From Pagrus major (Eukaryota; Chordata; Actinopteri; Spariformes; Sparidae): 64,000 nucleotides of DNA. Location: the NCBI RefSeq assembly GCF_040436345.1, contig NC_133230.1:26229697-26293696 (forward strand), written 5' to 3'. The notes under the pieces are model-generated. The model saw only the letters and a list, made by a program, of their open reading frames with translations. It made no database searches and had not been told where the DNA came from. This document shows, one piece after another, positions 6,456 to 63,890 of the stretch; the first letter of the stretch is position 1, and each line of letters begins with the position of its first letter. The position numbers were made by a program, and so were the translations under genes.

Positions 6456-7950
6456 TGTAGACCTCGAAGTGGACAAACCACTCTGCTGCTCTCCTACCAC
6501 AGGTGTGTCATTAAGAAGGAGCAGTGGCTGGAGGGACAGGTGAAGGAAATCAAGCTAACGAGGCTCACAGGCAATTATGCAGCCAGTAATGCTCAGTTGT
6601 GCTTTCTCTGGGTTTTATTGTGAAACAAAATGTATTTAGCAACTATAACTTTTTTTTAAATGAAGGAAATTGTGTATTTTTTTCAAAGTCATTTCAGATT
6701 TTAGGGGTCTTTGTTAAACCCTGACACCTGAGGCAAATTGTATCTAGAATAAATAGTCCAGTCTTCCCCATCTAGAATAATAGAATCATTATTCACTTGA
6801 TGATATCTATCTATATAAGTCATGGATGATTTAAAAAAAATCTGAATATTATATCCTCATCCATAAACACCCAAATCTGCAACCTTTATGATTTTATACT
6901 GATATTATAATCTTTAAAAGTAGAATTGTGTGTATAATACAGTTTTAATAACTTCCTTTATGTAGGAATCAGGTCACATTTACATATTGAAAGGACTGAA
7001 GAATTAGGACGCTAACTCTATGGGCATGTAGCAAAAGAACTACTTGTATATTGGTTTATACATTTGAAAAGCAAATAACATGATCAGTAAAGCTAAAGAT
7101 AAAAAAATAAAAATGTTACTAAACAACAATCTGTCAGATATAATGTAGGTGTAAACTACAAACAAAATTCATTACATCATAACAATGTGTTGAAAACTTC
7201 TATCTTGAAGTAAACATGTATGTAACGCTGTGATCCTACCCTCTCACTGAAGTTACATAGTGCAGAGACAAGTGATGGGGGGCAGAGTTGCTGAGACAGA
7301 CACCATTCACCCTATTATAAGACACTGTACCATCAGAATGATTCTGAAGCTGTTATTTTAAGGTAGAGGGAAAAAAAGTCACATAATGTTGCTTTAAATG
7401 TGAATATTTTCTAGTTTCTTTACTCCTCTATGACAGATTTGACAACGTTGGGATTTGGAAATACTGATCAACATTTTCACCATTTTCTGACATTTTATTG
7501 ACCAAACAACTAATCTAGTAATAAAAAAAAAAAGTTATATGAATAGACCACAGAAACCGGGTATTAGTTGCATTATAAACTCACTATAGCAGGCTATATC
7601 TTATGCAATATGGTGTGGTATTTAGATAGTGAAATTTTTTATCTGCTTTCTATTTCTTGGTATAATTTTGAAATATCCCTTTAAGTATCAATAGTCAGTG
7701 GTTATAGAGTTGCATGTGTAACAGGTAAATAACTTTTCCCTCCCAAACACCACTCTTGTACAGTGAACGTGCACCGGGCGGGGCGGCGCCTCCGCACAGG
7801 TAGGCGGAAGTTGGTCCCTGTTTGTCCGCAGGTGAGCGGCACTGAAAGAAGACAACGACCCATCGAAGGCGGAGTGTCGGAAAAAGCTGTCAGAAATGAC
7901 TTTAATACCACTTTAACACTAATGTGATCTAAGGGGACATAGAATACACC
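6456..7950. other. Divergent intergenic region between zp3 and tmem54
   Basis: Both genes start here and point away from each other. The left 650 bp is AT-rich without clear signals. A MITE copy occupies about 7125-7394. The right end (about 7760-7900) is GC-rich with CpGs and is the likely tmem54 promoter and 5' UTR. No other coding signal. Confidence 0.6.
7125..7394. mobile_element. Short inverted-repeat element (MITE-like), copy 2, inverted
   Basis: Read in reverse complement, this segment matches 3343-3590 over most of its length, including the shared block around the GTAGGATCACAGCGTTACAT region. It ends at 7381-7394 with the same 14-bp terminus (ACATAATGTTGCTT). The other terminus is degraded. 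Together with copy 1 it forms an inverted pair flanking the zp3 gene. Confidence 0.7.
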
Positions 7951-19160: not shown

Positions 19161-19498
19161 AAGTAGACATGGTTTTGATTGTTGGCAGGTTTTGATTGTC
19201 TTTCTAATTCTCCTCTCCTTCCTCGGAGACGTCACGGGCGGCTGGGGGTGAAGTTGTCCTTCTCTGTTCATCTTCTTATCTTGAAGAAATTACCACACTT
19301 TACTGAGAATCTTGCTTCGATATAGCTGGGATAAAACCTGGCTTCGTATATTCCTGAACTGACTGCAACATTTGTAACACCTACTACTGTGATGTGTGTC
19401 TTACAGCAGTGATCAGAGGAATGGAAGGAATGGTCACATGCAGTCAAAGAGCTTGCCAGCTTTAGAATTACATTCTCTCCCATTGGTTTATAGCCATG

Positions 19499-20003
19499 TG
19501 TAGTGGCAAATGAGAAACTGGGTCATGATCATGTATGTGATTAGATTTTGGAATATCCCTTGCAGTCCCAACTGTGCTCTAATTGAGCTTGAGGCTGATA
19601 AAAGACCAATGTTTGATGCACCATTTAAAATGAGCAACAGGTGCTGCCACAGTTTACCCAAGGCCACAGAAGAGGCCTGAGCAAGACATTTGTAGGTTCT
19701 TTAGAGCACACCCAAGAATGAGAATAATAAGTGATAAACCCAGGATGATCAAAAAGGTAAAAGGATGGTCCATAGGGGCGTGGGGACCCTGGACCACGGG
19801 TATAAAAAGGGGAGAATCAGCGAGAGATCTCAGTTGCCCCGGGGCAGCTCACGGATGTATATTTTCTGTTTTTGGAAATAAACACCTTTTGGACTGAGGA
19901 CCTGCTGCTTTGCCTTTGATTTTTTGGACTTCAACCTTGAGCGGATTTTCAGAGTCAGATAGTGCATTAATTGGAAAGATAAGAAAAGTAGTCTCCCACT
20001 ACA
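19499..20003 (+). repeat. 5' LTR
   Basis: 505 bp, TG...CA. It contains a TATA box (TATAAAAAGG, 19801-19810) and AATAAA at 19877-19882, placing U3, R and U5 in normal order. It matches the 3' LTR base for base as far as I could compare by eye. Confidence 0.95.
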
Positions 20004-21665
20004 TTTTGGCGACGCTAGCCGCGGAGGAGTGACCGGCACACAGCCTGCGGCAAAGGGACTGGGCGGGAAAGGACGGCGGAGCTCAGGCGCGCCCCACATC
20101 CACCATTAAGGTGAGACAAATTTATTATTATTATTTTACATGAGTAATGCTGTCCGCTCCTTCCCAGCCCACAAGTCTCAGGTATTTTGCTAAAACCTCT
20201 CCAAAAGAACCTAAAACTGATAAAAATTAAAATTAAAATAAATAAAAAATATATATAAAATTAAATTAAATTAAATTTTAAATTGTAAAAATAATAACCT
20301 GAATTGAGGTATTTAAGAGGCTTGACAGCGGTCTTCAGGTCAAAATCGTGAGTATGTGTGATTAATGATTATATATGTATGTTTAAGTCATATTATGTAA
20401 ATGTATGATTTAGTCATGTCAATTCATGTGTGCATGTGAATTATGTCTGAATATTAATGTTCATGCATAGCCTGTCCTAATCAAATTTTAATGGTAAAAC
20501 AAAAATATGCATGAAGAAAGATGGATAAATGTGAAAGGATGCTTTTTAACATGTTAATTTGCATGTGGATTTGTATGTGTTTGAGTCTAGGAAGTGGAAT
20601 AATATGGTATTTTGTAAAATATACGGCAGTACCAAGAATGATGATACAAGAAAATAGTACTAATCCATTATCTGTTGAAACAAATAATTCTAGCTGTGAA
20701 GAGTAGGGACAGATCAGCTGAGGATAAAATGCATGTTAATGTCTGAACAAGTTGTTATCGTTGTCTAAGCGTCTTATCAGTTGTTATCATTGTTCAAAGA
20801 AAAAATCTGAAGAAGTCGTTAATAAGTTTTATTGATGTTTGAGATTTGAGCAAGCGCTCGTAGCGACCCGATGGGAGGGTCGAAAGAACTATATGTCTAA
20901 TCAGTTGTTATTGTTGTTTAAAAAGTCTGAATAAGTCGTTAAATAAGTTGTTGTTGTGGTTTGAGATTCAAACAAGAGCTCGTTGCGACCCGGGTGAAGG
21001 GTCAAGAGAACTGGCGGTCTTACGTATAATCACCGTGCCCTCTCCGGGGTGATTTAGACGCGGGAAGTTCTGTATGGCAGGGAAGCCAGGTCATCGTGCC
21101 CTCTCTGGGATGACTAAAATAAGATAAAAGGATCCAAAGACAGCGCCTAAGTAAGAGGGCTGTGACATAGTAGTAAAACAGCTGTAGAGTAGAAAAAAAT
21201 AAGAAAATAGCATAAGGCCTTTGTAAATATATGTACAAAAAAGCATGAAAGTTGAAATATGCATGAATATATGTCATAAAATAAAAGAGGAGTATGAGTA
21301 CTGTGTAAATAATAAAGAGAATAATTGAGGCAGAACAAGTTATAAGAAATAAAATTATATTAAGAAATAAATTATTAACTATTAAAAAATACATTATTAA
21401 GAAATAATAATAAGAAAATAAAAGCAGTAAAACGCAGTGAAGAAGAAATTAAGAAAACTTGTTTGACAAAAATACGTAAATAATAAATAATATATAATAT
21501 ACAATAATAATATAATAATATTGAAATTGATTAAGAGAAAAAGAGATTAATAATTGGAGGGCCAGAAGAGGAGCAGTCTAATCTAAAAAGATAACGGCGG
21601 CAAGAAAAGAAAAATAGAAGATAAAAGCAGCGCGGGGCCTGCTGTACCAGTTAGCGTCTAACAGA
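20004..21665 (+). other. Retroviral leader: primer site region, splice donor, repeats and hairpins
   Basis: Directly after the LTR comes TTTTGGCGACGCTAG. TGGCGACG is where a tRNA primer-binding site should be, but I match it to tRNA-Ser(GCU) over only 8 bases, so the primer is unassigned. A strong splice donor (AAG|GTGAGA) sits at 20110/20111 and would serve spliced viral mRNAs, as the family is known to use. At 20774-20898 and 20899-21022 lie two diverged copies of a unit of about 124 bp, each holding a hairpin with a 7-nt loop (stems CGACCC/GGGTCG at 20864-20882 and GACCC/GGGTC at 20987-21003). Two more hairpins follow (21028-21054 and 21089-21115). The rest is AT-rich. A 61-codon open stretch (20521-20706) with one hydrophobic segment may be chance. 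Confidence 0.75.
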
Positions 21666-24236
21666 ATGGGCATAACGCACAGTAAGCGGCCGACGGGATT
21701 GACACCAGTCGAACTAGTAATGTTGAAACATCCAACACAAAAGAGAAAAATCCAGGAGTGCATGAAAAAGTGGCACAGAGTATCCTCCGGAGCCACTAAG
21801 TGGCCAATAACAGGGACTTTTGACCTAAATTATTGTGACCGAATAGAGGCTGAATTACGGAGAAAAGACCTAAAAAATGATAAAAAGCATCAAAATAAAA
21901 AGATGAATCACGCTGAACAGAGAGATGTGCTGCAGTACTTCAAAATAGAAGGAACACAGAGGCTAATGGCAGTACAACAAAAAAGGGAGCAGAATAAAAC
22001 AAAGCCCACTGCTCCGGTCTTAGAAGCACAAACACCGCCACCGCCATACGTGTCTGGGGAGGAAATAAGACAGTTTCCACTGAGAGAAGTGGATGGGAGA
22101 ATAGTGGGAAAACTTACAGTAGACTTGAGAGAGAAAACGGAACATCAGAAGCAAATAACACACACAAAAGCCAAAAGATTAGTGAAGACCTTGAATACTA
22201 GCCAACGCTCAGCACAGCACAAAAGAACACACAGTCAGGGTAGTATTTCAGAGGATTTAGACCACAGCCAAACCTCTGAGCATTTAGCAGAAAATTTAGA
22301 CAGAGAAGGAAGCGACCATGACAGTGATGTGACTGATCTCGACCGTGACGTATCACCAGCACCGTCCGAAACACAGACGGTGAAAAGCAGAGAGCAACAA
22401 CAACATGGTACAGCACGGCACTCCACTCCAACACAACATGCACTAGACCCTAAAGTGTTCAAGGAGTTCAGCAGGCTGATGGAGAAGCTGGAAGAAAGTC
22501 AAAAACCACATGCACACACACTCCCCTGTGAAGACAGAAGGGGAGTGAGAGAATGGCTCAAGTACTCCCACCCAGGCGACAGACAGCTGCACAGAGGCCA
22601 AATTGAACCATGGGAAATGGAGTTTGGAATACAAAGATGCAGAGAAATAGAAGAAAAAATAGAAACTGGAAAGGCCACACGGGAGGAAAAGCAGTGGTAC
22701 CACGAATGTAAAGCACAGCTCGTGAAAGACGCAGGAAAACACTCAGGCTACACACCTGATTGGAATGGCTTAATGAAAAGCTTTCGTCAACAATACGAAG
22801 CTGACATGATAAAAGAGGAACAGGAGATATTAAAGGAACAGGCACAGGAGAGGAACAGAGCCAAATCACGACAACCTCTGACATATGAGGTAAACTTGGC
22901 AGTTGCCGGAAATATGGACACAGGGTTAAATCACCTGCAACTACGAAGGCGACGCATCCCTGATTATCATACAAAGGTCAACCCACTCACTGGAGAGAGA
23001 GAGGAGGAAGAGGAACTCTCTGAAGAAGAGGAAAGAAAAGGTGAAGGGTCAAAGGAAACAATACTGCCCCTCCTGGCCAAAGGACCAGGCGAGGCTGAAA
23101 GATATGTGCCCTGGAGTTTCATGGACATGACAGGGTTAATAAACCGTCTACCTGCACTAACAGAAGGAGCTGATAAATGGATCAGAGCCTTTGAGGAAAA
23201 CACAGGAGGAGTAAAGCTGGCGCTGGGAGATATTAAGGCCATACTAATGAAGATAGTAGGCCAGCAGATGGCGGCCGAAATCTTTGAAGATGGAAGTGCA
23301 AGAGCATTAAATCATAATCACTATCATGATGCTAAACCCTTTGGACACTATCGAACAAAAATATGGGAGGCATTACGAAACAAGTATCCATCTAAAATGG
23401 ATCCATCCAAGCTGGAAAGGCAGACTTTGAAAGAAGGAGAAAATCCAACACAGTTTTTACATGAGTTTCAAAGAAAGTGGAAAGAAGAAACTGGAAGTGA
23501 CTGGAACGCAAATGAAGCATCTAAAGCTCTGTTCAAGCTGTATGTGAAAAATGCCATGCCAAAAGAAGTACAAAATAAACTAAACCAAGTGGTTGGCCTG
23601 ATGAAAATGGACTGGCCTGTGTTTTCAGAACACATTGTACATTATGTGGATACATACAGAGCTGAAAAGTCAAGCCAAGAAGAACAGAGCAGAATGTTAG
23701 CTGGAAAGCTAACACAACTCCAGATTGGAGAATTGACCAAGAACATCAAGAAAGACAAAGATAAGGCTAAATACCAAGCATCAGTGACAACTACAGCATC
23801 AGAAATCAAGCCTAATCCTGCACCTGAGGTAAAAGCTGAGCCAGCAATCACTCAGGCACCAATGTTTGCAGCAGCAGCGGCACCACCACAAACTCTGCAA
23901 CAGCCCTCAGCTGTCCAGCAACCAAACTATGCAACAGCTCCAACAACAATGCAACAAGCTCCTCCAATACACGTGCATTTTGACCAAGGAGGAAACACCG
24001 GCTACCCGCCACAGGGTAGAGGAAGAGCAAATCAAAATGGAGGACCGCCACAAAGAGGAAGATGGAGAAGAGGACCTCCACAAATGCAATACCAACGTCA
24101 ACAGCCTTCATATGGCCAACCAGCACAAAACACACAACGACAAAACAGCCAATGCTGGGGATGTGGACAATCTGGACACTTGCAGAGAAACTGCCCAACC
24201 AATCCCTGGATGGGACCCGCAGCACAATGGCAATAG
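21666..24236 (+). CDS. gag: Retroviral gag
   Basis: 856 codons, open throughout. The start MGITHSK fits an N-myristoylation signal (Gly2, Ser6). A PPPY late-domain motif lies near residue 125, in the matrix/p12-like part. A charged central region precedes the capsid (from about residue 480, PWSFMDMTGLINRLPAL), which resembles gamma/epsilon capsids. The C-terminus is Gln/Pro-rich with one CCHC zinc knuckle (CWGCGQSGHLQRNC). It is long for a class I gag. pol follows in the same frame after a stop, the arrangement for which gamma- and epsilonretroviruses are known to use read-through. Confidence 0.93.
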   Translation: MGITHSKRPTGLTPVELVMLKHPTQKRKIQECMKKWHRVSSGATKWPITGTFDLNYCDRIEAELRRKDLKNDKKHQNKKMNHAEQRDVLQYFKIEGTQRLMAVQQKREQNKTKPTAPVLEAQTPPPPYVSGEEIRQFPLREVDGRIVGKLTVDLREKTEHQKQITHTKAKRLVKTLNTSQRSAQHKRTHSQGSISEDLDHSQTSEHLAENLDREGSDHDSDVTDLDRDVSPAPSETQTVKSREQQQHGTARHSTPTQHALDPKVFKEFSRLMEKLEESQKPHAHTLPCEDRRGVREWLKYSHPGDRQLHRGQIEPWEMEFGIQRCREIEEKIETGKATREEKQWYHECKAQLVKDAGKHSGYTPDWNGLMKSFRQQYEADMIKEEQEILKEQAQERNRAKSRQPLTYEVNLAVAGNMDTGLNHLQLRRRRIPDYHTKVNPLTGEREEEEELSEEEERKGEGSKETILPLLAKGPGEAERYVPWSFMDMTGLINRLPALTEGADKWIRAFEENTGGVKLALGDIKAILMKIVGQQMAAEIFEDGSARALNHNHYHDAKPFGHYRTKIWEALRNKYPSKMDPSKLERQTLKEGENPTQFLHEFQRKWKEETGSDWNANEASKALFKLYVKNAMPKEVQNKLNQVVGLMKMDWPVFSEHIVHYVDTYRAEKSSQEEQSRMLAGKLTQLQIGELTKNIKKDKDKAKYQASVTTTASEIKPNPAPEVKAEPAITQAPMFAAAAAPPQTLQQPSAVQQPNYATAPTTMQQAPPIHVHFDQGGNTGYPPQGRGRANQNGGPPQRGRWRRGPPQMQYQRQQPSYGQPAQNTQRQNSQCWGCGQSGHLQRNCPTNPWMGPAAQWQ

Positions 24237-24284
24237 GGATGCCCAGAGAAACCTGAAGGGGAAGTTATAACACCTGTTCTAACC

Positions 24285-27200
24285 ATGCAACCACAAACTG
24301 AGCCCACCATAGAGGTAACAATACAGAATCGTCAGCATAATTTTATGGTGGACACAGGAGCAACACACTCCTGTATTGGAAAAGAAGGAGCTGGGCTTCC
24401 CCTTTCATCAGCAAAAATTCGGACAGTTGGTTTCTCTGGGAAGACTCAAATAATACCAATGACAGAACCAGTTCCTATGAAAATTGCAGGAAGAACTGTT
24501 TATGCGCCACTACTCTACTCAGTTGACACACCCATCAATCTATTAGGAAGAGACATTTTGTGTACACTACAAGCAAGAATAATGTGCACACCGGATGGCT
24601 TACATTTCGATCTGCCAGAAGAAAATCTGCAGACATTAATGGCACCAGTGATGGAACAACATATGGTGACCAAAGAAGCACATGTATATTGGATGAAAAT
24701 AACCTCACCAAACTCTTTTCTGCATCAAGAATGGGAAACATGGAAGCTATTTGTTACACACTATTATGAAGCAGCCCAAGAACCCACTCTTCCACTTCAC
24801 TGTACCATGATGTATGATGCTGATGGTGAACAAGAGGACTATGATGCATGTTGGAACGAACTGATTAATCACACCACGACAGTCATACAATGTGAGGACA
24901 TCATAATGGGACCTCAAGGAACAGCAGCAGCAGTCAGGCTCTCAGAAGATGTGAAAGAATGGTTTCAAGATTCTAACTCATCACCCCATGTGACATTACT
25001 GGTGGCAGCTGGACATGAATCACATGAATTAGGACCAATGATAAAAGAAGCTCAACAAATCCAAGAATGGATTTCCACAGACAATCAATATATCCATACA
25101 TCACCAGATGGACGTTTTCTGAGAATTTCATACAAAAAAGCCGACGAAGTGATTGCAGAAAAAGTGTTGTTGCCCACAGAAGAAAAGACACAAATGTTCT
25201 TGACCAAAGATCATGAAGACCTGTTGTCACAAGTCCCATCACAAGTATGGTCAGCACATAAAACTGATGTAGGTTTAGTGAAATCAGCAACCCCACAGCG
25301 ATTTCAAATAAAAACAGATGTACGTTTACCATACCAAAAACAATATCCTCTCAGACAGGAAGCAATCAATGGCATAAAACCAACTATAGAAGGATTATTA
25401 GAGGCAGGAGTTCTAATAAAGACTAAAAGCCTGTGCAATACACCAATTTTTCCAATAAGGAAACTAAATTCCAACGACTACAGGTTGGTGCATGATCTAA
25501 GAGCAATAAACGCCATAGTAACGGAAGAAACACCAATCGTACCAGATCCACATACATTACTGTCCAACATTCCTCCAGAGACAAAATGGTACACGGTGAT
25601 AGACTTGTGCTCTGCATTTTTCAGTGTGCCAGTTCATCCAGAGTCACAATATCTGTTTGCATTTACTTATCAAGGACAGCAGTACACTTACAGCAGACTG
25701 CCACAAGGGTTTGTGCACTCTCCATCAATATTTAACAAAGTTCTAGCAGAAGACCTGCAACATTTAAATGTTCAGTCCACCACTTTAATGTATGTCGATG
25801 ACATTCTTATATGCTCAGACAGCCAAGAGCAGTGCAAAAAGGACTCAATTACAGTTCTGAAAGCACTAGCAGCAGGTGGACATAAGGTCAGTAAAAGCAA
25901 ACTGTAGTTTTGTCAACAAACGGTAGAATACTTAGGCCGGCAACTGAGTGGGAATAAAAGACAAATTGCACCCTCTCAAGTTGAAGCTGTAACAAAGGCT
26001 CCAAAACCGCAAACGGTGGGGCAAATGTTGTCTTTTCTGGGCATGACTGGTTACAGCAGACCATGGATATGTGACTATGCAATCAAAACAGCTCCATTGA
26101 GAGCTCTGATACGTGCTGCAGGGCAGACAAACAGGTCAGCCCAGTTAAATTGGACAGAGGAAGCCGAAAAAGCATTCTTCCTCCTTAAAACAGATATGCA
26201 GACTGCCCCCGCTCTGGCCACCCCAGATTATAGTAAACCCTTTCATCTTTATGCAGCTGAACGACAAGGTTATGCATGTGCTGTGTTAATGCAGGATTCC
26301 CCCACAGGAAAACAACCATTGGCTTATTATAGCACAAGACTGGATAACATAGAAGAAGGCCTGCCTCCCTGTTATCAGGGATTAGCTGCAGCTGCCTTTG
26401 CTTATAAAAAGGCATCAGTCTTGACAATGGGACATCCTGTTACATTATATACATCACACCAGTTACATGCCATGCTAACCAGCCCACGGTTTGTATTAAC
26501 TCAAGCCAGAAGAACTGGTTATGAAGTTTTGTTATCAGGAACAGAACTTACAATACAGCGATGCAACACTATAAACCCAGCAACAAGAATGGTGTTGCCC
26601 ACTGATGGCATTCCTCATGATTGCCTTAAAGAAACAGATAGTTTCATGAAAATACGCGAGAATTTGTACAACCAACCAATCCCATCAGAGCTAACATTAT
26701 TTGTAGATGGATCTTGCGTACGAGGTGACATAGGTAATTGTGCAGGATATGGAGTTGTGCAGTTGAACCCAGATAATACATTCACCAAACTCCTATCAGT
26801 GCGTTTAGATCAACCATGTTCAGCTCAATTAGCAGAAATAAAAGCCCTAACTGCAGCTTGTCAGTTAGCTGCAGGAAAAAGGGCAACTATCTATACCGAT
26901 AGTGCTTATGGTTACGGTGTTTGTCACATTAATGCCAGTATTTGGAAACAGCGAGGTTTTGTTCGTGCAGATGGCACTCCTGTAGTGCATGGACATGGAG
27001 TGTCAGAGCTAATCCAGGCAATACAATTGCCTACAGAATTAGCTATAGTTAAGTGCGCAGCACATCAGACCAACGACTCACTGGTAGCTAGAGGAAATAA
27101 TTTAGCTGATGAGGCAGCAAAAGAAGCTACAGGGCAAGCAACTCAAGCCCCAATTTTGTTTGAGCAAGACTGTGCCCCTATAACCAGTTTAACCTCACTA

Positions 27201-28682
27201 ATAGAGGCACAAAACCAAGTCCCAGAAGCAGAAAAACGCTTATGGGTTCAAAGGGGGGCAATCAGAACAGTGACCCCCCATGAAGGACTGTGGAGAAGCA
27301 GTCATGGACAATTTGTCCTACCTCTGTCATTGCTAAAGATAGCAATAAAGAAAATGCATGAGCCAGATCATTGTTCACGAGCTCAGGTTTTGAGAAAACT
27401 ACAAGCAGTATGGTGGTCTCCATACATGATGGCAATGGTAGATAGAGAATTGGCCATATGTATATATTGTCCAAAATATAATGTTCGCAAATCATTCACT
27501 CATCCATTGGCTCATATCCCAGTACCAGAAGGCCCATTTAGGCATCTGATGATGGATTATGTAGACATGCTGGATAGAGTTCAAGGCAAAAGATATATGT
27601 TTGTGGTAATTTGCAGATTCAGTAGATGGGTAGAGGCATGCCCAACTTCTAGAAATGATCACAGAGCAGCTGCTAAATTTTTGTGTACAGAGGTGTTCCC
27701 CAGATTTGGCATGCCAGACACCATCTCATCAGACAGCGGACCACACTTTGTGTCCTCTGTCATAAAAGAAATGTTTAAAACACTTGGAATACAACAGAAA
27801 TATGGATGTGTGTATCACCCACAGTCACAAGGTTCTGTAGAACGTGCAAATGGTGTATTAAAAACTAAAATAGCCAAAATCATGGCTGGCAGTAATGGTA
27901 AACTCACCTGGGTGGATGCTTTGCCATTAGCACTAATGTCTATGCGCTCGCAAACTAACAGACTAACCCATCTAACCCCGCATGAAATGCTTACTGGACG
28001 CCCAATGCCTCTGCCACAGTGCAGAGGCCCTATAGAGGGACCGCCGCTTCAGCAGCTGGAGCGAGAATTGGGGGACTATTTACGGGGTTTAACTCAAATC
28101 CACAGACTTGTCTTCCAACAGGTGAAAGAAGCCAATAAAGGAGACGATAAGGGAATTCCAGTGGATGCTCGTGAGACTCAAGTGGGAGACCAGGTGTTCG
28201 TACGAGTATTTAGACGCCAGTGGCACGAGCCCCGTAGGGAAGGGCCATTTAAGGTGGTACTTACTACACCCTCAGCCTTGAAAGTAGAAGGTAAGAACTT
28301 TTGGTACCATCGTAACCACTGCACCCGTCACCGACCGCCAGACCCGCCTGGGCATTTGCCTGAGCATGCTGAAGGGGCTGCGGAAGACACCCCCCGCACT
28401 GTCACACCTAGTGAAGGGGAGGCGGAAAGCACACCCCGCAGCGTCACACCTGGTCCCACTGCATCGCCTCAAGGGGAACGACGTTCAGCCCGATTACGGG
28501 CCCGACGTGACAGTACTCCCCTATCACGTACTGATCATAGTGTTGGAGCGGCTGCAAAGAATGATGCCGCCAGCACTGCCACAGGCGGTGACACTCCAGA
28601 AAGTGCAAGTGCAGGACCGTCTGGCCTGCAAGATACAGACTGCCCACTCACGCCTGGGGGGGCGTTCTCTGACTCAGATTAG
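24285..28682 (+). CDS. pol: Retroviral pol (protease, reverse transcriptase, RNase H, integrase)
   Basis: Parts in order: aspartic protease (VDTGATHSCIG), a spacer, reverse transcriptase with LPQGF and YVDD motifs, RNase H (LFVDGSCV, then YTDSAYG), integrase with its HHCC zinc region, the D,D35E core (MDYVDM, SSDSGPHF, and Glu in QGSVERANG), and a GPY/F-type C-terminal domain (EGPFKVVLTT). The tail is Pro/Ser/Thr-rich and overlaps the start of env. It looks almost intact, with about one break. The wording places it in class I, gamma/epsilon side. Confidence 0.92.
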
Positions 28683-30636
28683 TTTGTTTGTTTTCTTTTT
28701 CTTTGTGCTAACCCTTTCAGGTTTCGCAAGGGGGGAGGGAGAAGGAGAAGTCCTAATGACACGATCCTTTTCCGCCACTATTAACACACCACATGTTAAT
28801 TGTGTACTTGCCATGATTATGTTAGCCACTGATAAAGGCATGATACAAATAGGAGAACCACATCACTTTCTGTATGTAAAAGCTGACACATATGAGTATG
28901 TACTAACCACCGACATCACAACAGCCAACGCTCCAGGTAAACATTGGGTGGGATTACCCCGCACCGCTGACTGCCGAGAAGAAGGGATGGTGACATTGCA
29001 GGTAATATGCACCAACACATCATGTCAGGAGGTAGAAACAAACCAGGAAATGACAATAGTAGAAGCTAGCAAGTGGATTCAGCTGATGAACAAGCGAGAA
29101 AAACGAGATTTGGCCAAACTAAAAACTGCACAGTGGGACTCAAACATGTTTCAACAGTGGATAACCTACTCAGCTGAAGCAGTGTACAAAGCACAGAATA
29201 AAGACCGACAAGAGTGTATTGCATGTTACAACGCCAAAAGAATACCACAGCTCATGCCACTGCCAGGAAGTCACATAGGTGACTGTCCAGACCTAACTGA
29301 ATGTTTTGCTTTTTGTGCAATGCACATGGCAGGGAAATTGGATGGATGGAGTAAAGACTCACAGATATGCCCATATAGATTTAAAAAGCATGACAGCTAT
29401 GACATAGCAACAGCAATGCCACCTGTGGTACGTAAACCTGATAAACTACTCTTCCCTTTCTGTGTAGTGCGAGGAGAAGAGTTGGAATATGTAACCCAAA
29501 GATCCACACCCAACATGACGGATGCAGCAGGACTGGTGAGATGCAGCAAGGAAACCTGGTATCCAACCACTGACACCGGAAACACCACAGCCACCATCAA
29601 AATGTGTGAAACCAGCCCAAAGGCCCGTATCAGGTGTGGTCAGGTTGTGCCAAATGGAGGACAGGTAATCTATGAGAAAAACTCATCTCATATAGCTCAG
29701 TACCGATTGCTAAATTGGGCACATGGTACTGCCCCATTGGGCGACATCTACTGGATGTGTGAGCACAATGCCACCCTATTAACCCAATTACCAAAGGATT
29801 GGACAGGCATATGTGCCCCGTTAATGTTGACAGGACAATTGACCTTAATCACACCAAAAGATAACCAAATTCACAATCGAGCTAAAAGAAATAGTGAAAG
29901 TGAGAACGGTAATACAGATTGGAATTGGAAATGGAAACACTCAGATGAGGTATATATCAGCTGGGATCAAGTCCCTTATGGAGTCCCAGCAGAGTATGAG
30001 GCCATAGGAGACTTATGGATAAAATCAGGACGAGGTTTGGGAATTGCTCCATTTGTAGGACAAATAGCAAATGCCCAATATATAGCACGAAATAGTAGAT
30101 GGGCAAATTATTTGTGGTATAACCAACAGAGATTTATAAATTATACCATTTTGGCCCTGGGACTAGTGAAAGAACAATTACATGCCACCTCAGTAATGAC
30201 CATGCAAAATAGGTTTGTGATTGAAACTATCATGGCAGGTGATCAAGGAGTGTGTGATGAAATTGGAGATGAGTGCTGTACTGTAATACCAATGCACACT
30301 GGTGAAGAAGGCAACCTGACCCACGCTTTAGAAAATATGAAAAAGTTGCAGGATGAGCATGTCAGAAATTCCAATTGGAACACACAACTAAAAAGCTTTT
30401 GGGATTGGCTGGAAAGAATGGGCTGGGGACGATTGTTCAAAATGATAGGATTGGTGGTCGGGGGGTTCCTGTTGTTGGTTGTGATGGTGGTTTGCTGTGT
30501 TTTACCTTTGCTGCGCATTCTAATCGAGCGAGTATTCAAAACAATAACTGGTCAGTACCCACTATTGCAGGTGCAGCACGAGTTTAACATGCAAATCTAT
30601 GATCAAATCAGCATTGTTGATAGTGAGATAATCTAA
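28366..30636 (+). CDS. env: Retroviral env
   Basis: An open frame of 756 codons overlapping the pol end in another frame. The true start may lie further in: a hydrophobic signal segment (FVFFFFVLTLSG) occurs only about 110 codons along, at about 28690-28725, and the same bases form a polypyrimidine tract ending in CAG. The surface subunit has many N-glycosylation sites. A furin site RAKR lies at 29878-29889. The transmembrane subunit has MQNRFVIE followed by the CX6CC motif (30253-30279), typical of gamma-type envelopes with covalently linked subunits. The membrane anchor is near 30450-30520, followed by a cytoplasmic tail of about 40 residues. It looks whole. Confidence 0.93.
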   Translation: MLKGLRKTPPALSHLVKGRRKAHPAASHLVPLHRLKGNDVQPDYGPDVTVLPYHVLIIVLERLQRMMPPALPQAVTLQKVQVQDRLACKIQTAHSRLGGRSLTQISLFVFFFFVLTLSGFARGEGEGEVLMTRSFSATINTPHVNCVLAMIMLATDKGMIQIGEPHHFLYVKADTYEYVLTTDITTANAPGKHWVGLPRTADCREEGMVTLQVICTNTSCQEVETNQEMTIVEASKWIQLMNKREKRDLAKLKTAQWDSNMFQQWITYSAEAVYKAQNKDRQECIACYNAKRIPQLMPLPGSHIGDCPDLTECFAFCAMHMAGKLDGWSKDSQICPYRFKKHDSYDIATAMPPVVRKPDKLLFPFCVVRGEELEYVTQRSTPNMTDAAGLVRCSKETWYPTTDTGNTTATIKMCETSPKARIRCGQVVPNGGQVIYEKNSSHIAQYRLLNWAHGTAPLGDIYWMCEHNATLLTQLPKDWTGICAPLMLTGQLTLITPKDNQIHNRAKRNSESENGNTDWNWKWKHSDEVYISWDQVPYGVPAEYEAIGDLWIKSGRGLGIAPFVGQIANAQYIARNSRWANYLWYNQQRFINYTILALGLVKEQLHATSVMTMQNRFVIETIMAGDQGVCDEIGDECCTVIPMHTGEEGNLTHALENMKKLQDEHVRNSNWNTQLKSFWDWLERMGWGRLFKMIGLVVGGFLLLVVMVVCCVLPLLRILIERVFKTITGQYPLLQVQHEFNMQIYDQISIVDSEII

Positions 30637-30794
30637 ACAAGTCACCATCCACTTCTCTCAAGGTATGTAAGCATTCTTGTCTAAATATAAAATATATGAG
30701 CGTTGTATACACATGTAAATATTTCATATGTAAATATCTTTTATGCTAAATATACGAGTAGTAATTGTATTGTCTCCATCACAGACTGGACACA

Positions 30795-31757
30795 ATGGTG
30801 GAGGCATACATATACAAGTCGCAGTCCACAGAGATGCACACCAGGCACAGCAGCGAGAATTATGGTCCAACACACACACCTACATCTACAGTTACACAAT
30901 ACACAGCTATGCAGCCAGCAGGAGCACCAGCAGACCAATATGCACAAATGGGAATGCCTGGCAGCATGGGAGAAGATACACCACTGGTAGGTCGACACCC
31001 TTCGCCACAACCGCCGCCGGAGCATCCAGAACACCCACCGATAACCTTCGCCCAACCTTGGAGGGCAGGTTTCAACTCATCCCAGGACCTGGCAATGCGA
31101 GTATCCGCCTCATCAGAAGCAAGAGTGGTTCCACACCGTCCAGGAGTCTCCCCAACGGGGAACATGTTCAGCCCAGCGAGCCCGGACGGCGAGGAGGACA
31201 GAGGACTCCATCGCATAGAGCCCATCAGACCTGCACTACGAGGCAGGTGGGCCCAACGGCTAGCCCAACCACTACAAGATGAGTTTGCTGCAGACGACGT
31301 GGGAAAGCTCAATGAAGTGCTGCCACAGCCACTGAGCACATACCCATCACGCCGAGATGCTGAGACTGCAATAGGCAATCTGCCTAAACCCGTGTACCGC
31401 ACCCTGCAAACACACCTGTCACCCCAAGCACATGACATGATAATCAAAATCAGGAGAAACGTACTTGGGCGCAAACGCACAGTTAAAGCTGTGCAGCTAC
31501 AAATGGACAATGGGCACCTGAACACCTCTCTGAAACACGTGCAAAATAGAGTTACAGAGCTGCAGGCAGAGAATGCACACTTGCAGATGATGGTGAAGCA
31601 ACTGCAGCGCCAAAAGGATAGCTTGCTGAAATTCTGCAATGAAAGACTGCAACAACAAAGAGCAGCATTGGCGATGTTCAACACAGGGGTGACTACAGTG
31701 GGAAATAGTCACTACCCTGATAATGGCCAGAGGGGTACTTACAACAGTGCCCAATAG
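30795..31757 (+). CDS. Retroviral accessory frame A, leucine-zipper protein of unknown role
   Basis: 320 codons from the ATG at 30795, which lies 11 bases after an acceptor-like site (CCATCACAG at 30776-30784); the frame is also open from 30765. The first 130 residues are Pro/Ser/Thr-rich and look disordered. The C-terminal part has a basic run (RRNVLGRKRTVK, about residues 220-231) followed by leucine or valine at every seventh position seven times (codons from 31497 to 31623), with Asn at two 'a' positions. This is a clear coiled coil of bZIP style, but the spacing between basic run and zipper does not fit canonical bZIP. I recognise no homolog. By position it corresponds to orfA of walleye dermal sarcoma virus, which is a cyclin, but it shows no cyclin box I can see. 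Confidence 0.75.
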   Translation: MVEAYIYKSQSTEMHTRHSSENYGPTHTPTSTVTQYTAMQPAGAPADQYAQMGMPGSMGEDTPLVGRHPSPQPPPEHPEHPPITFAQPWRAGFNSSQDLAMRVSASSEARVVPHRPGVSPTGNMFSPASPDGEEDRGLHRIEPIRPALRGRWAQRLAQPLQDEFAADDVGKLNEVLPQPLSTYPSRRDAETAIGNLPKPVYRTLQTHLSPQAHDMIIKIRRNVLGRKRTVKAVQLQMDNGHLNTSLKHVQNRVTELQAENAHLQMMVKQLQRQKDSLLKFCNERLQQQRAALAMFNTGVTTVGNSHYPDNGQRGTYNSAQ

Positions 31758-32667
31758 AGGACAAAACATGAGTCGAGCACTGCTGTATGACACAGCTTAT
31801 GTAAATAGATGGGAACAATGGAGAGAGCTACGCGACCAACATGTTCCTGCCGGGAGAACGGTAGGAGGCTGGTCATATGGAGACTTTTTGACACCCTATG
31901 TCCAATATATAGATAAAGACTCAGACATTCGCTGCCAAGCCCCAGGCCCCAAAATAATAAACACATTAGTTGGTTATGTACCACAACTCCAGCATCGGGA
32001 TGACTGGTACGAACCCTGGAAGCAAGCATCAGATCCCATTACCCCCTACTTACAGTGGAATGCATCAGAAGACCTACGATTAAACTGGATGCTGGTTAAC
32101 AGAAATCACAGAAGATCCCTCCTCAGACAAATTGAGGAAACTGAAACCTACCGCTATTGGGACGAGGGGTTTGCATTGTTGCAAGGTGAGACTCTGACTG
32201 ACAATATCATGCCCTTGAACCACAACTTACGTGTGCAGACTGTGAACTATCTGGTGACAGCAACATATGTATTGTTCCTCTGGACATATCCTTTTTTCAA
32301 CCAGAGCCGCAATCCTTTCACCATATATCCTGGGCTAAAAACGACGTCCTATGCCCTGATGTTTCACAGTAGCCAGGAAGTCATCAACATTATGGATAAT
32401 GGACAAAATGTGATCTGGTCAAATGTGCCAGCAAAAATGCAAGCCTGGCTAAAGTTGCTGTCCGCACCTGGAGTGGAGAAACCCAGGTGGAGACAGCAGG
32501 ACAGAGGTAGCCATCGGTACCTACATTCCCCAGGAAGAAGGGTGAGGTATCAAAACGGAAACTACCGTGCAAGAGAGAGAGAGTTTGACAGGTTTATAAA
32601 TGGAGCTCCAGCAATTGTACGACGATCCTTTGGATTCAATACAGTTATGTGGGATCACTTGTTGTAA
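31723..32667 (+). CDS. Retroviral accessory frame B, unknown protein
   Basis: 314 codons, overlapping the end of frame A by 35 bases in a different frame; an in-frame ATG at about 31768 is an alternative start. The protein is rich in Trp, Tyr and Arg, with no signal peptide and one moderately hydrophobic stretch (YLVTATYVLFLWTYPFF) in the middle. The C-terminus is very basic (RRVRYQNGNYRAREREFDR). I recognise no family. Length, composition and position right after frame A argue that it is real. By position it matches orfB of complex fish retroviruses. Confidence 0.7.
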   Translation: MARGVLTTVPNRGQNMSRALLYDTAYVNRWEQWRELRDQHVPAGRTVGGWSYGDFLTPYVQYIDKDSDIRCQAPGPKIINTLVGYVPQLQHRDDWYEPWKQASDPITPYLQWNASEDLRLNWMLVNRNHRRSLLRQIEETETYRYWDEGFALLQGETLTDNIMPLNHNLRVQTVNYLVTATYVLFLWTYPFFNQSRNPFTIYPGLKTTSYALMFHSSQEVINIMDNGQNVIWSNVPAKMQAWLKLLSAPGVEKPRWRQQDRGSHRYLHSPGRRVRYQNGNYRAREREFDRFINGAPAIVRRSFGFNTVMWDHLL

Positions 32668-33944
32668 ATGTGTAGTGATGATGAAATGAGTGTTTGATAA
32701 AGGTAAGAGGGCACTCATTTGTGAAGGTAACGGCAGAAAGCTGAGTGCCGTAACAAGCACGAGAAAGGTTTTAAACCAGTGTGGTTTGCAGGAAACCAGT
32801 AAGCTCATAGGGGCTCTGGTGGAATGTTAGTTTTTTGGAAAACAATAATAAAAGCCTAAAAATTAAATATATATATATATAAGGAGGTTAATCTCCATAA
32901 GTGGTACCTAGACATAGGTTGACAAAACCAATGTTGAGATGATAGACAAAGGTTGCAAAGGTTGTTAAAACCGATGTTGACAAAGTGATTGTCACCTATA
33001 TATATATATATTACTCTTAATCACTTTAATATAATCATAATGTGCACAAGTTATTAATTATGCATGAAATAAAGCACATGTAGTTCTAGATGATTACACT
33101 TTGTGGTATTAAATATGATTCACAATGTAGTATTAGTAGATTATATGTTAACCATGTAGTTTTAATCCATCCACGAAGGGTAAACTGTCCATGCAAATTA
33201 CCCAGGCGTGTTGTTTTTTAAAGTCCTGCTCTATTATTAGACTAGAGTTTCTCTATCTTACTATGGAAACAGGCAAAAAAAGTATTATTGAAAAATCTCA
33301 ACAAAAACAAAAAGACAATATGAGTATCTCATGACGATGATCTAATAACTGTTGATCTAGTGTTTACTTGTGTTGACTTAAGGTGGATTACCGCCACAAG
33401 AATGTGTACCCATTTAATGTCATGGACTTAAATGTGTTTATTAAGCATGTGTAATGTGTTTTATCATCATTTATATATCTATTTTACCATTGAGTTTAAA
33501 GTGTTTTGCCATTTGATTTTGAAGTTATTCTGTGTTGTATGCAGCACCAAAAGGACAGGTCAGTTTGAACAGTGGGCCACATGATGGGGCCTTTACCTCT
33601 CAGAAACAGCTAAATTGGAGAGGATGTTTCCCCCATCATGTTGCCAGGTCAGAATAGAAATCTGTTAATGAATATCACTGGGTCATCTGTTTGAGGGCCG
33701 GTCCAGAAGATGGCTCAGGGAAAACTCTCAACTATCCTCTTGATAGTTGAAGCACTTCCCTATGGGTTGATACTCATTGTCAGTCTTATAGGTTGGAGTT
33801 GCATTTATATCGTTTGATACCATATATACTATGTGTTATTTACATTATATTCATGCTATTGTTTGTGTTGTGTTGACTTGTGTGAGCTCTCCCGGGTCAT
33901 TAGTGGAAGTATTGGTCCTTTTTTTTAAGGACCAAAGGGGGGAC
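32668..33944 (+). other. Retroviral 3' non-coding region and polypurine tract
   Basis: 1.28 kb without a long frame, unusually long for a provirus. It holds two short AT tracts (about 32864-32881 and 32998-33011) and scattered repeats of a 'gttgacaaa' type phrase near 32920-32990. It ends in the polypurine tract AAAGGGGGGAC (33934-33944) directly before the 3' LTR, the plus-strand primer site. Confidence 0.75.
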
Positions 33945-34449
33945 TGTAGTGGCAAATGAGAAACTGGGTCATGATCATGTATGTGATTAGATTTTGGAAT
34001 ATCCCTTGCAGTCCCAACTGTGCTCTAATTGAGCTTGAGGCTGATAAAAGACCAATGTTTGATGCACCATTTAAAATGAGCAACAGGTGCTGCCACAGTT
34101 TACCCAAGGCCACAGAAGAGGCCTGAGCAAGACATTTGTAGGTTCTTTAGAGCACACCCAAGAATGAGAATAATAAGTGATAAACCCAGGATGATCAAAA
34201 AGGTAAAAGGATGGTCCATAGGGGCGTGGGGACCCTGGACCACGGGTATAAAAAGGGGAGAATCAGCGAGAGATCTCAGTTGCCCCGGGGCAGCTCACGG
34301 ATGTATATTTTCTGTTTTTGGAAATAAACACCTTTTGGACTGAGGACCTGCTGCTTTGCCTTTGATTTTTTGGACTTCAACCTTGAGCGGATTTTCAGAG
34401 TCAGATAGTGCATTAATTGGAAAGATAAGAAAAGTAGTCTCCCACTACA
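33945..34449 (+). repeat. 3' LTR
   Basis: 505 bp, same length and, by eye, same sequence as the 5' LTR. It is followed directly by the CATG target repeat. Confidence 0.95.
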
Positions 34450-36138
34450 CATGCTAATAGTGTTGGTATAATGTATCCAGTCACATAAAATCAAAACCAT
34501 CGTCATGTCAAATGGGATACGTGAGAAAGTATGTTTTCAAGCGATGTGACCCTTTAATTCATCTGCCAACCCCCAAGTCCTCAAAGGCTTCCCCACAATG
34601 CATCTCATGCATGGATGTGTTAATATTATAATGAACAATAAAAGATGATTAATGGAAGATTTAACAAACAAGTCAGTGCATCAATTAACTGCTTTTCCTA
34701 GATGCTTCAAATATAATTTTCTTTGCAATTTTGCTATTAATGCTATCAATTAGGGTGAACGAACAACTGATTCATCCAAATGGTTCCTGTAGTATTACAT
34801 TATTATATATTTTCTGATTAAAGGGTAAATTCGTCCAAAAATGAAAATTCAAAGGTAAGTGTAAAATGTAAATGTAAGTCTCCAGAAGCCCTAAGATCCC
34901 AAATTGATTTGAAAAGATGTTATTTACACCATTGATGCACTGGTGATCTTGTGCACCCACTTCAGACAGGATGCGCACTAAAGGACTATTTTCTATAAAC
35001 AGTCATAAAAGACTTGAAGAGACTATGGATTGGACCAGGGGCACGTGTTTATACATCTCCGCCTTGTTATATGGTATTTGTTGTATGTTTTGCTGACTGA
35101 ATATGTAAAATAAAAAGTGAGTTAAAAAAAATAAAAAATAACTGATGTATTAATGCACAAGCAGAAGTAGCTGTCAAGGAGTGTTTCAACCTACTCATAG
35201 GTATATGGCTTTGTTGTTTAATCTGTGGTTATAAAGTTATAAGTTATATAAGTTTTAAATATAAATCTTAGTAACTCCAACCATCAAATAAATATAGTGT
35301 GGTATAAAGTATCATATTTGGCTCTAAAATGTGATGTATATCTTTTATAAGATGGTAAAGTAAAAAGAAAGTGTGCATGAACACTGCAAGTACCACAAAA
35401 TTGCACTCAAGTTCAGTATTGAAGTAACTGTACATTTTACCACTGTTGCTCAATATCAATCAAAGACTATGTGCGTGATCATCAATTCATATTTTTTTGT
35501 GGCTGTTTTATTTATTTTGGCATCTCTGCAGAATTGTTGCCAACAAACTACACTGTCTAGAATGCAGCATGATTTAATTTGATAAATGTACTTAAATGCA
35601 GGAATATTATTTGAGTATTTTTGTACATTATGAAACATATCACACAGTATATCCGGGCTGATGGTGGTTCATTTTAGCTTAAGTGAATGGTGATGGGTTT
35701 TGCTTTATTCAGTATAACATCAAACAACAACCATGTAAAGATTTTTACTGTAGGTAAAACAATTTGAAAACACTGATTAAACTGCAGAGGTAAGACATGG
35801 CTGAAGCAGTTTGACAATATTTACATCTTAATAATAAGCACCAGGAGAGCAGCTACGTATTCAGCGACATCAGACAGTTCCCAGCTGGCTCCACAGTGTG
35901 CTTCAGGTTCCACATGTGACTGTATCATATCAAAGAGGCCATTTCAATATAAGATTGATGCAGAAACAAAGTACTCTTATTTGCAAAATCTCAGTGTGTA
36001 CCTCAATATAAAGGCACGTACTCTTTAACAAACAAACAAACAAACAGAAAAATATAATTCAGCCTCCACCTTCACAGGCTAGGCCTTTAGTTTGAGTATT
36101 TCTATTGCATGTCTCAATGTCTTTCTGCCCCATCAGGG
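34450..36138. other. Intergenic and lck 3' UTR
   Basis: AT-rich. On the minus strand AATAAA sites read at 35507-35512 and 35511-35516, about 620 nt after the lck stop, and could end its transcript. A block of about 44 bp at 34682-34725 closely repeats 17759-17803 on the other side of the retrovirus. An AAAC microsatellite lies near 36026-36047. No gene seen. Confidence 0.5.
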
Positions 36139-62900: not shown

Positions 62901-63890
62901 CACGGATGACAGGTGGAGGGTTTGAGTCCAAATCGTCTTATAGCCACTGGAAGAGACTGCACAGACAGATGGAGAGGTGTGTGTGTTTGTAAACCGTGTT
63001 GCTCACCTTTCTATAATATCTGTTCTGTTCCATCAAACTCACTGTCTTTATATGTGTGCACAGGGCTAAAGCACTGCAGGAGAGTCTAATTAAACTGGTG
63101 GAGGCTTGTGGTGACTCGTCCCATAATATGGATCGTTGGCTCAGTAAGCTTGAAAATTCAAAGTGGCTGTCTCACGTCCAGACGGCTCTGTCGACTGCTG
63201 GCCTGCTGGCGGAGTGTGTGGAGAGGTAGGAACTACACCCACTGTGTGTGTCTGTGTTGGGATTACAGTTTGTGTGCTCTGATCTCCTGCTTGTATAACT
63301 GCAAACTGTATGCAAACAACCTTTTGAGAAGATTTTTTTTTTCACTTCACAGGAAGAGGGTAAAATCCACAATTATAATGTGTAAATAGAATGATAATAT
63401 TTCATTAATTGAACCTGTACACAACTCAAACAGAATACATTTAGTGTGTGCAAGTTGCAACACTTTAATCAGCTTGTCTATAGGGACAGTCGTAGCCACT
63501 TGAAGTAATATCGGGGGGAAAGAAAAGGTAAATTTCACAGAAGACAAAACAAATCACATATAGAACATGATGTCAAAAGACAGTAAAATACCACAGGCAT
63601 AGGCTGGACATAAAAAATAAGAATAAAAAACAAACATAAAATATGTTAACAGTACCAGTAGAAGGGCTTCAGTAATTTTTAGTATGCCTTTTCTTATACA
63701 TGTGGAAGAACAGAACTGTATTACTGTACATCTATGGGTTTTTTCCAGGGACGGTCATTCAGTTCTAGTTCACGGCTCTGAAGGGACAGACTCCACTTTG
63801 CTCATCAGCACTCTGGCTCAGCTCATCATGGACCCATGCTGCCGCACACTGGAGGGCTTCCTGGCTCTGCTGGAGAGGGAGTGGATACAA
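59940..63890 (+). CDS. mtmr9: Myotubularin-related protein 9-like (partial, first seven exons)
   Basis: Exons 59940-60124, 60942-61050, 61162-61287, 62501-62674, 62759-62976, 63064-63225 and 63749-63890, all GT-AG and in phase: 372 codons of an expected 550 or so; the rest is off the right edge. It starts MEFSEHIKTANVEDVVL with a PH-GRAM domain (GTLCITGHHLLFSD, GTIIIKCKDL), then the phosphatase-like domain (YSVCPSYPPAVIVPK, GRFPVLCYYHRKNGM, MRSSQPLTGANRKRCREDE, KGYIIDTRS). The active-site loop reads VHGSEGTDST: the Cys and Arg of CX5R are absent, as in human MTMR9, so it is a normal inactive family member. MTMR9 binds and stimulates active MTMR6-8, which act on PI3P and PI(3,5)P2. Beside fam167b and lck this is probably the 1p35-type ohnolog, which human keeps only as pseudogene MTMR9LP. 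Confidence 0.9.
60631..60670. repeat. (CA)n microsatellite, interrupted
   Basis: About eight CA units followed by CG/CA variants in intron 1 of the mtmr9-type gene. Confidence 0.85.

What the first reader, a model, noticed from the sequence alone, without database searches (positions are those of the whole stretch)
19499..34449. Very young, complex fish retrovirus with two unassigned frames after env
A 14.95-kb provirus has LTRs identical by eye over 505 bp, an intact 4-bp target repeat, long open gag and env, and two further long open frames (320 and 314 codons) between env and the 3' LTR. Extra frames there are known for epsilonretroviruses such as walleye dermal sarcoma virus (12.7 kb). 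The predicted products here do not look like its cyclin-type proteins. This may be an undescribed lineage of complex class I retrovirus that entered a fish germ line recently.
Basis: partly seen in the sequence, partly recalled or inferred. Interest (0 to 1): 0.88.

Follow-up and report, generated by a model that had tools for sequence, protein, structure and literature searches.

The report
Young fish retrovirus, two extra genes
A retrovirus that inserted itself recently into a fish chromosome carries, besides the usual virus genes, two extra genes that have relatives in other sequences and match no convincing described protein family, although its copying-enzyme gene is now broken by a stop signal.

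Summary
The LTRs are identical over 505/505 bases, with a CATG target repeat. Between them lie gag, a pro-pol frame behind a readthrough-type UAG, env, and two overlapping frames of 320 and 314 codons. Not in the finding: pol carries a second in-frame stop (TAG, 25905-25907) just after the RT core, so this copy is not autonomous.

Pol is 92-95% identical to a Sparus aurata Gag-Pol and groups with fish class I ERVs; MLV and a bird gamma-like ERV fall outside. Both extra frames have relatives elsewhere: ORF-A 63-67% (3 proteins, one an annotated S. aurata gene), ORF-B 48-81% (5 proteins). They are not one-off captures. Neither matches a cyclin; ORF-A draws only scattered coiled-coil-type Pfam hits. 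ORF-A has a predicted splice acceptor before its ATG and a leucine zipper, complete in 2 of 4 homologues, behind a basic stretch. A Maf/bZIP relationship was tested and not supported. ORF-B could not be modelled.

No WDSV, SSSV, ZFERV or SnRV sequence was reached, so "undescribed lineage" and genus membership stay unproven. New variant of a known kind.

The parts
19495..19498 (.). target-site repeat CATG, left copy (right copy 34450-34453)
19499..20003 (+). 5' LTR, 505 bp, TGTAGT...CTACA; TATA box at 19801, AATAAA at 19877
20004..21665 (+). 1.66-kb untranslated leader; longest plus-strand stop-free stretch 63 codons (20004-21617 scanned); the one splice donor found by simple consensus is AAG|GTGAGA at 20110|20111
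21666..24236 (+). gag, 856 codons; MG start, PTAP and PPPY motifs, one CCHC box; ends in TAG followed by GG, same frame as pol
24237..25907 (+). pro and RT core (to past YVDD), ended by an in-frame TAG at 25905-25907: pol is broken here
25908..28682 (+). pol, second piece: RT tail, RNase H, integrase with MLV-type C-terminal domain
28561..30636 (+). env (stop-free from 28288; start codon not settled); CIAC motif, RAKR site, CX6CC; weak matches to syncytin TM
30765..30784 (+). predicted splice acceptor TTGTATTGTCTCCATCACAG|, its exon starting 10 bases before the ORF-A ATG; the S. aurata protein model diverges at this point
30795..31757 (+). accessory ORF-A, 320 codons; basic stretch and leucine zipper (L245, L252, V259, L266, L273, L280, L287 in P0001 numbering)
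31723..32667 (+). accessory ORF-B, 314 codons, overlaps the end of ORF-A; conserved, no known relatives found
32668..33944 (+). 1.28-kb untranslated stretch (longest plus-strand stop-free stretch 60 codons); 9-bp inverted repeat at 33912-33935 running into the polypurine tract AAAGGGGGGAC
33945..34449 (+). 3' LTR, identical to the 5' LTR

Best explanation
A recently integrated provirus of a complex, class I (epsilon-like) retrovirus of spiny-rayed fish, now pol-defective. Shown: identical LTRs, target repeat, gag-UAG-pol layout, class I RT/IN, gamma-type Env motifs, and two extra frames with relatives elsewhere. Inferred: Pol is made by UAG readthrough. Env and ORF-A come from mRNAs spliced from the leader donor near 20110, ORF-A through the acceptor at 30784. 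ORF-A would act as a zipper-dimerising regulator that adjusts LTR or host transcription, the kind of job that rv-cyclin does in WDSV. ORF-B would be a second, globular accessory protein made from the same or another spliced mRNA; its task cannot be named from sequence.
For: LTR identity 505/505 and target repeat. Pfam RVP, RVT_1, RNase H, rve and MLVIN_C. The window's own RT piece matches MMLV RT (1mml) at 4.3e-48, entries labelled Peptidase A9/RT (foamy by recall) at 2.3e-28, Ty3 at 4.5e-20 and HIV-2 RT at 1.6e-18. Pol is 92.8% and 92.2% identical to S. aurata A0A671WVG1 over 540 and 924 aa. Both trees pair it with S. aurata (SH-aLRT 100 and 97). ORF-A relatives: 3 of 1053 candidates scored. 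ORF-B relatives: 5 of 727. P0006 holds an ORF-A piece fused to ORF-B, so the two frames were neighbours at another locus. The acceptor before ORF-A lies where the S. aurata model changes from MGD to the shared RLDTM. Start context ACAATGG. Seven L/V/I/M heptad steps, a run reached in 43 of 20000 shuffles; P0010 has leucine at all seven.
Against: No RNA data, and no DNA of other copies. The fourth zipper step is glutamine in 2 of 4 homologues, P0009 and P0011. No basic-region homology to bZIP proteins: the non-zipper part scores against MafG much as shuffles do (137 of 5000 reach it), and a PDB search with that part finds no bZIP protein. Several coiled-coil Pfam families score ORF-A better than bZIP_2 does, and CP12 just passes its cut-off on a 101-residue slice of one member (23.2 against 22.7 bits; 20.3 on the whole protein). 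A looser acceptor scan picked 30663 rather than 30785. ORF-B has no acceptor in either scan, and 21 AUGs lie between the two starts.
Confidence: 0.72

Rival explanations
1. The two frames are fragments of host genes captured by this copy only.
For: Neither frame has a retroviral relative in Pfam, and ORF-A is richer in GC (0.53) than the other coding parts of the provirus (0.41-0.46).
Against: Relatives of both frames occur in other sources, and P0006 shows pieces of both side by side. Third-position A (0.34 and 0.31) is like env (0.34); no host codon baseline was computed.
Confidence: 0.05
2. ORF-A and ORF-B are WDSV-type accessory proteins (rv-cyclin / Orf B) diverged beyond sequence recognition.
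Against: No cyclin family at E up to 1 for either frame or the homologues scanned. ORF-A carries a zipper. For ORF-B both fold predictions failed (mean pLDDT 34.5 and 32.0), so it is not excluded.
Confidence: 0.12
3. LTR identity reflects assembly collapse or gene conversion, and the insertion is older.
For: One locus in one assembly; the pol stop is a possible decay mark.
Against: Intact target repeat, and gag, env, ORF-A and ORF-B all open.
Confidence: 0.12
4. The antisense frame opposite ORF-A (30860-31708, 282 aa) is a gene, as HBZ is in HTLV-1, and partly explains the conservation there.
For: 4 of 2000 synonymous recodings of ORF-A give an antisense frame as long; median 112.
Against: The translation is cysteine-rich and unlike a regulator by eye; no homologue DNA to test; conservation of the ORF-A protein explains the region without it.
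Confidence: 0.06

Closest known systems
Sparus aurata ERV: Gag-Pol A0A671WVG1 (P0012) and LOC115590547 (P0009)
   Same: Pol 92-95% identical; ORF-A 67% identical
   Different: Its pol frame is open (1464 aa); whether P0012 and P0009 come from one provirus is not known
Walleye dermal sarcoma virus and WEHV-1/2 (Epsilonretrovirus)
   Same: Fish retroviruses of 12.7-13.1 kb with accessory frames (passages of PMC3185748); two of them after env (recalled)
   Different: WDSV has rv-cyclin, Orf C before gag and a tRNA-His primer; here no cyclin match, no leader frame over 63 codons, and a different primer-site start
Snakehead retrovirus (SnRV)
   Same: Exogenous complex fish retrovirus with a 3' frame (PMC12193657, first part of the text read)
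   Different: 11.2 kb, four frames of 52, 94, 76 and 205 codons; no sequence could be compared
Teleost epsilon-like ERVs with additional frames (CNPase, macro domain)
   Same: Fish ERVs that occasionally carry extra frames (passage of PMC4977317)
   Different: ORF-A and ORF-B gave neither domain in the Pfam scans
HTLV-1 HBZ (recalled; papers seen only in listings)
   Same: Retroviral leucine-zipper protein
   Different: HBZ is antisense; ORF-A is sense. Their sequences were not compared directly

Membership tests
Class I ERV (gamma/epsilon-like) | RT nearest to MLV-type RT | tested here: met
   Window RT piece alone: MMLV RT 4.3e-48, Peptidase A9/RT entries (foamy by recall) 2.3e-28, Ty3 4.5e-20, HIV-2 1.6e-18. 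A six-row fish/bird profile agrees, but it contains a gamma-like bird row and not the window
Class I ERV (gamma/epsilon-like) | gag and pol in one frame separated by a stop | tested here: met
   TAG at 24234-24236 followed by GG, frame continues
Class I ERV (gamma/epsilon-like) | gamma-type Env with SU CXXC and TM CX6CC | tested here: met
   In P0003 numbering CIAC at 310, RAKR at 531 (and REKR at 270), CX6CC at 656; syncytin-2 E 3.3e-4. Pfam gave only sub-threshold GP41 and TMIE
Genus Gammaretrovirus | RT inside the gammaretrovirus clade | tested here: not met
   MLV and a bird Gag_p30 ERV lie outside the 63 other rows (SH-aLRT 97); the outgroup was set by me and the bird row is a long branch
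Genus Epsilonretrovirus | RT groups with WDSV/WEHV | not testable with these tools
   None named so among the 120 listed of 152 hits; no pol relative in viral contigs
Genus Epsilonretrovirus | rv-cyclin accessory gene | tested here: not met
   No cyclin family at E up to 1; a fold-level cyclin in ORF-B is not excluded
Genus Epsilonretrovirus | Orf C before gag | tested here: not met
   Longest plus-strand stop-free stretch in the leader 63 codons
Genus Epsilonretrovirus | tRNA-His primer (PMC3185748) | tested here: inconclusive
   Primer-site region begins TTTTGGCGACG, unlike the tRNA-His end as recalled; no host tRNA set was at hand
SnRV clade | RT groups with SnRV | not testable with these tools
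   No SnRV sequence reached; the MLV-like RT and integrase C-terminus argue against it
bZIP transcription factors (ORF-A) | leucine zipper | tested here: met
   7 hydrophobic heptad steps in the window copy, 43 of 20000 shuffles reach it; unbroken in 2 of 4 homologues, glutamine at step 4 in the other 2
bZIP transcription factors (ORF-A) | homologous basic region | tested here: not met
   137 of 5000 shuffles reach the MafG score (733 of 5000 for the basic stretch alone); no bZIP protein found with this part

The most novel reading that the evidence does not exclude
A lineage of complex class I retroviruses in spiny-rayed fishes that carries its own two-gene regulatory set, unrelated to rv-cyclin, Tat, Tax or Bel: a sense-strand leucine-zipper protein that controls LTR and host transcription, and a globular partner (ORF-B) of a new family, with relatives recent enough that infectious members may still circulate.
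Probability: 0.27. Interest if true: 0.76.

Novelty: new variant of a known kind. Interest (0 to 1): 0.56.

Why it matters
Only a few complex fish retroviruses have named accessory proteins. A second pair of accessory genes, present in several sources and without a cyclin match, would suggest that class I fish retroviruses acquired regulatory genes more than once. It would also give a defined marker (env - ORF-A - ORF-B - LTR) for surveying farmed and wild sparids.

Tried and rejected
Maf/bZIP homology of ORF-A: suggested by eye, by C/EBP-beta making up 10 of the 12 PDB rows of a single-sequence search (E 0.16-0.4), and by MafG being the PDB match with the longest span of the A6 profile (positions 6-87, E 0.7, fifth of nine rows). 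Rejected: the non-zipper part is reached by 137 of 5000 shuffles and the basic region alone by 733 of 5000; a PDB search with that part finds no bZIP; the whole-length profile finds none either. The zipper half scores above all 5000 shuffles, but no unrelated coiled coil was scored as a control.

ORF-A/ORF-B homology to each other: hhalign gave 31% probability, P 5e-4 over 34 columns, where the chimeric P0006 puts ORF-A residues into A2. Without P0006 (A8) the signal is gone: probability 0.04%, P 0.87.

ORF-B fold: two AlphaFold jobs, pLDDT 34.5 and 32.0. Too poor for a fold search; none was run.

Viral and prokaryote collections: no confirmed relatives of ORF-B, pol or ORF-A in viral contigs. 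Genome contigs gave none for ORF-B and one distant pol-like contig of a Methylococcales MAG, 27%, not followed.

Rest of the window: no LTR match by blastn and no match of the six provirus proteins by tblastn, both at E up to 1e-3.

Literature: nothing matching this layout in the listings or passages seen (searches; one search was on lokiretroviruses). The library holds only open-licence papers, and no supplement was read.

The window's own RT was then run against the PDB, because the earlier profile held a bird gamma-like row and not the window.
Full report
What is there. The 14,951-bp element at 19499-34449 has two LTRs that agree at all 505 positions, TG...CA ends and a CATG target repeat on both sides. 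Each LTR has TATAAA at offset 303 and AATAAA at offset 379. A polypurine stretch abuts the 3' LTR. A primer-site-like TGGCGACG starts at 20007, three bases after the 5' LTR; by recall it matches only about 8 bases of a serine tRNA end, so the primer is unsettled.

Genes. Gag is 856 codons, with an MG start, PTAP, PPPY and one CCHC box; Pfam sees only the knuckle, below its cut-off. It ends in TAG followed by GG, and the same frame runs on into protease and RT, the layout that MLV-type viruses read by UAG suppression (recalled). A second TAG at 25905-25907 lies past the YVDD-containing RT core and cuts pol; the rest of RT, RNase H and integrase follow in the same frame. A database Gag-Pol protein of Sparus aurata is open across that point (1464 aa), so relatives with an open pol exist. 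Env has gamma-type marks: CIAC, RAKR and CX6CC, and a weak syncytin-2 match at E 3.3e-4; Pfam gives only sub-threshold GP41 and TMIE. Its start codon is not settled.

Age. No difference in 505 bp gives a 95% upper bound of about 0.3-1.5 My for assumed rates of 1e-8 to 2e-9 per site per year (the rates are assumptions). Assembly collapse or conversion could mimic this. Recent retroviral insertions are common in vertebrates: PMC10435555 (passages read) reports 412 identical-LTR, coding-intact, polymorphic elements in 123 species. This copy would fail its coding criterion.

Placement. The window's RT piece matches MMLV RT at 4.3e-48, far better than Peptidase A9/RT entries (foamy by recall, 2.3e-28), Ty3 (4.5e-20) or HIV-2 (1.6e-18). 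The second pol piece had 152 relatives at E up to 1e-20 among 7999 scored candidates, 120 listed; the best is S. aurata, 95% identical over the 820 residues searched. Over the two whole pieces identity is 92.8% and 92.2%. A tree of the second piece used 65 rows: the window and the 64 of 120 listed hits aligned over at least 650 residues. It pairs the window with S. aurata (SH-aLRT 100) in a nine-row set (100) whose named members are Sparus, Oreochromis (that cluster also carries a Mustela label), Centropristis and Festucalex; four rows are unnamed. The RT-core tree (65 rows: window, MLV and 63 hits) repeats the S. aurata pairing (97), with Takifugu next (94), in a 13-row set of weaker support (91) that also holds Myripristis, a holocentriform; so I say spiny-rayed, not percomorph. 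It leaves MLV and a bird Gag_p30 element outside the other 63 rows (97), rooted there by my choice. Both trees are quick searches without bootstrap. PMC4977317 (passages) states that ray-finned fish mostly contain epsilon-like elements and that no gamma sequence had been found in teleosts (2016). I therefore call it epsilon-like class I. Genus membership is untested for want of reference sequences, and the cyclin and Orf C features of WDSV are not met.

The two extra frames. ORF-B has five relatives at E up to 0.01 among 727 candidates, 48-81% identical. ORF-A has three among 1053, 63-67%; one is the annotated S. aurata gene LOC115590547, isoform X2. Two of the ORF-B relatives (P0005, P0007) are partial and one (P0006) is a chimera of ORF-A and ORF-B residues, the only hit that shows both frames together. 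These databases list open frames, so openness there is partly selected; length and patterned conservation carry the argument. No DNA of other copies was available, so dN/dS was not measured, and no hit was seen beside its own pol or env. ORF-A and ORF-B are not related to each other once the chimera is left out.

ORF-A. The first 130 residues or so are the most variable; from there on there are invariant blocks (NMFSPA, EEDRGLH, GKLNEVLPQPL, TYPSRRD) and then LSPQAxDMIxxIRRNxLxRxR followed by heptad positions L245-L252-V259-L266-L273-L280-L287. The hydrophobic run of 7 is reached in 43 of 20000 shuffles. P0010 has leucine at all seven steps; P0009 and P0011 have glutamine at the fourth. Pfam hits on the C-terminal slices are scattered coiled-coil families: bZIP_2 in 3 of 4 members, best E 0.012, against GIT_CC 0.0027 (3 members), UPF0242 3.2e-4 (2) and CP12 1.2e-4 (1, just over its cut-off). 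I take none of them as kinship, since they disagree and most lie below cut-off. The single-sequence PDB search gave 10 C/EBP-beta rows among its 12, E 0.16-0.4, but the profiles did not repeat this. The Maf test failed outside the zipper. What stands is a probable dimerising zipper behind a basic stretch; a nuclear regulatory role is inference.

Expression. Simple consensus scans find one donor in the leader, 20110|20111. Before ORF-A the stricter scan finds one acceptor, CACAG|A at 30784|30785; a looser scan had listed 30663. The S. aurata protein model changes from MGD to the shared RLDTM at 30784|30785, as expected if the same acceptor is used there. The ORF-A start context is ACAATGG. ORF-B starts 32 bases before the ORF-A stop codon. 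Neither scan finds an acceptor for it in 31300-31750, and 21 AUGs intervene, so plain leaky scanning is unlikely. How ORF-B is made is open.

Judgement. The finding is real. It is weaker on coding integrity, because pol is interrupted. It is a new variant of complex class I fish ERVs. The step to a described new lineage needs reference viruses that I could not reach, and the genome search, which might have given copy number, never answered.

Noticed in passing
window 30860-31708, minus strand: A 282-codon stop-free frame runs antisense to ORF-A; 4 of 2000 synonymous recodings of ORF-A give one as long.
   Followed up: partly
window 33912-33935: A perfect 9-bp inverted repeat with a T loop lies just before the 3' LTR, its right arm running into the polypurine tract.
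   Followed up: partly
window 20004-20030: The primer-site region starts TTTTGGCGACGCTAGCC and fits no vertebrate tRNA end that I recall beyond about 8 bases; a short or unusual primer match is possible.
   Followed up: partly
window 62417-62989, plus strand: Host coding stretch of a myotubularin-related phosphatase (Pfam E 2.3e-43).
   Followed up: no
window 6036-6551, minus strand: Frame with a weak ZP-N domain match (E 3.2e-4, below the curated cut-off), perhaps an egg-coat type gene.
   Followed up: no
P0069: A pol protein 55% identical to the window's is filed under a Brevinema sp. MAG, probably fish host DNA in a bacterial bin.
   Followed up: no
P0006: A protein that joins a truncated ORF-A to ORF-B, probably from a copy with an internal deletion.
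   Followed up: partly
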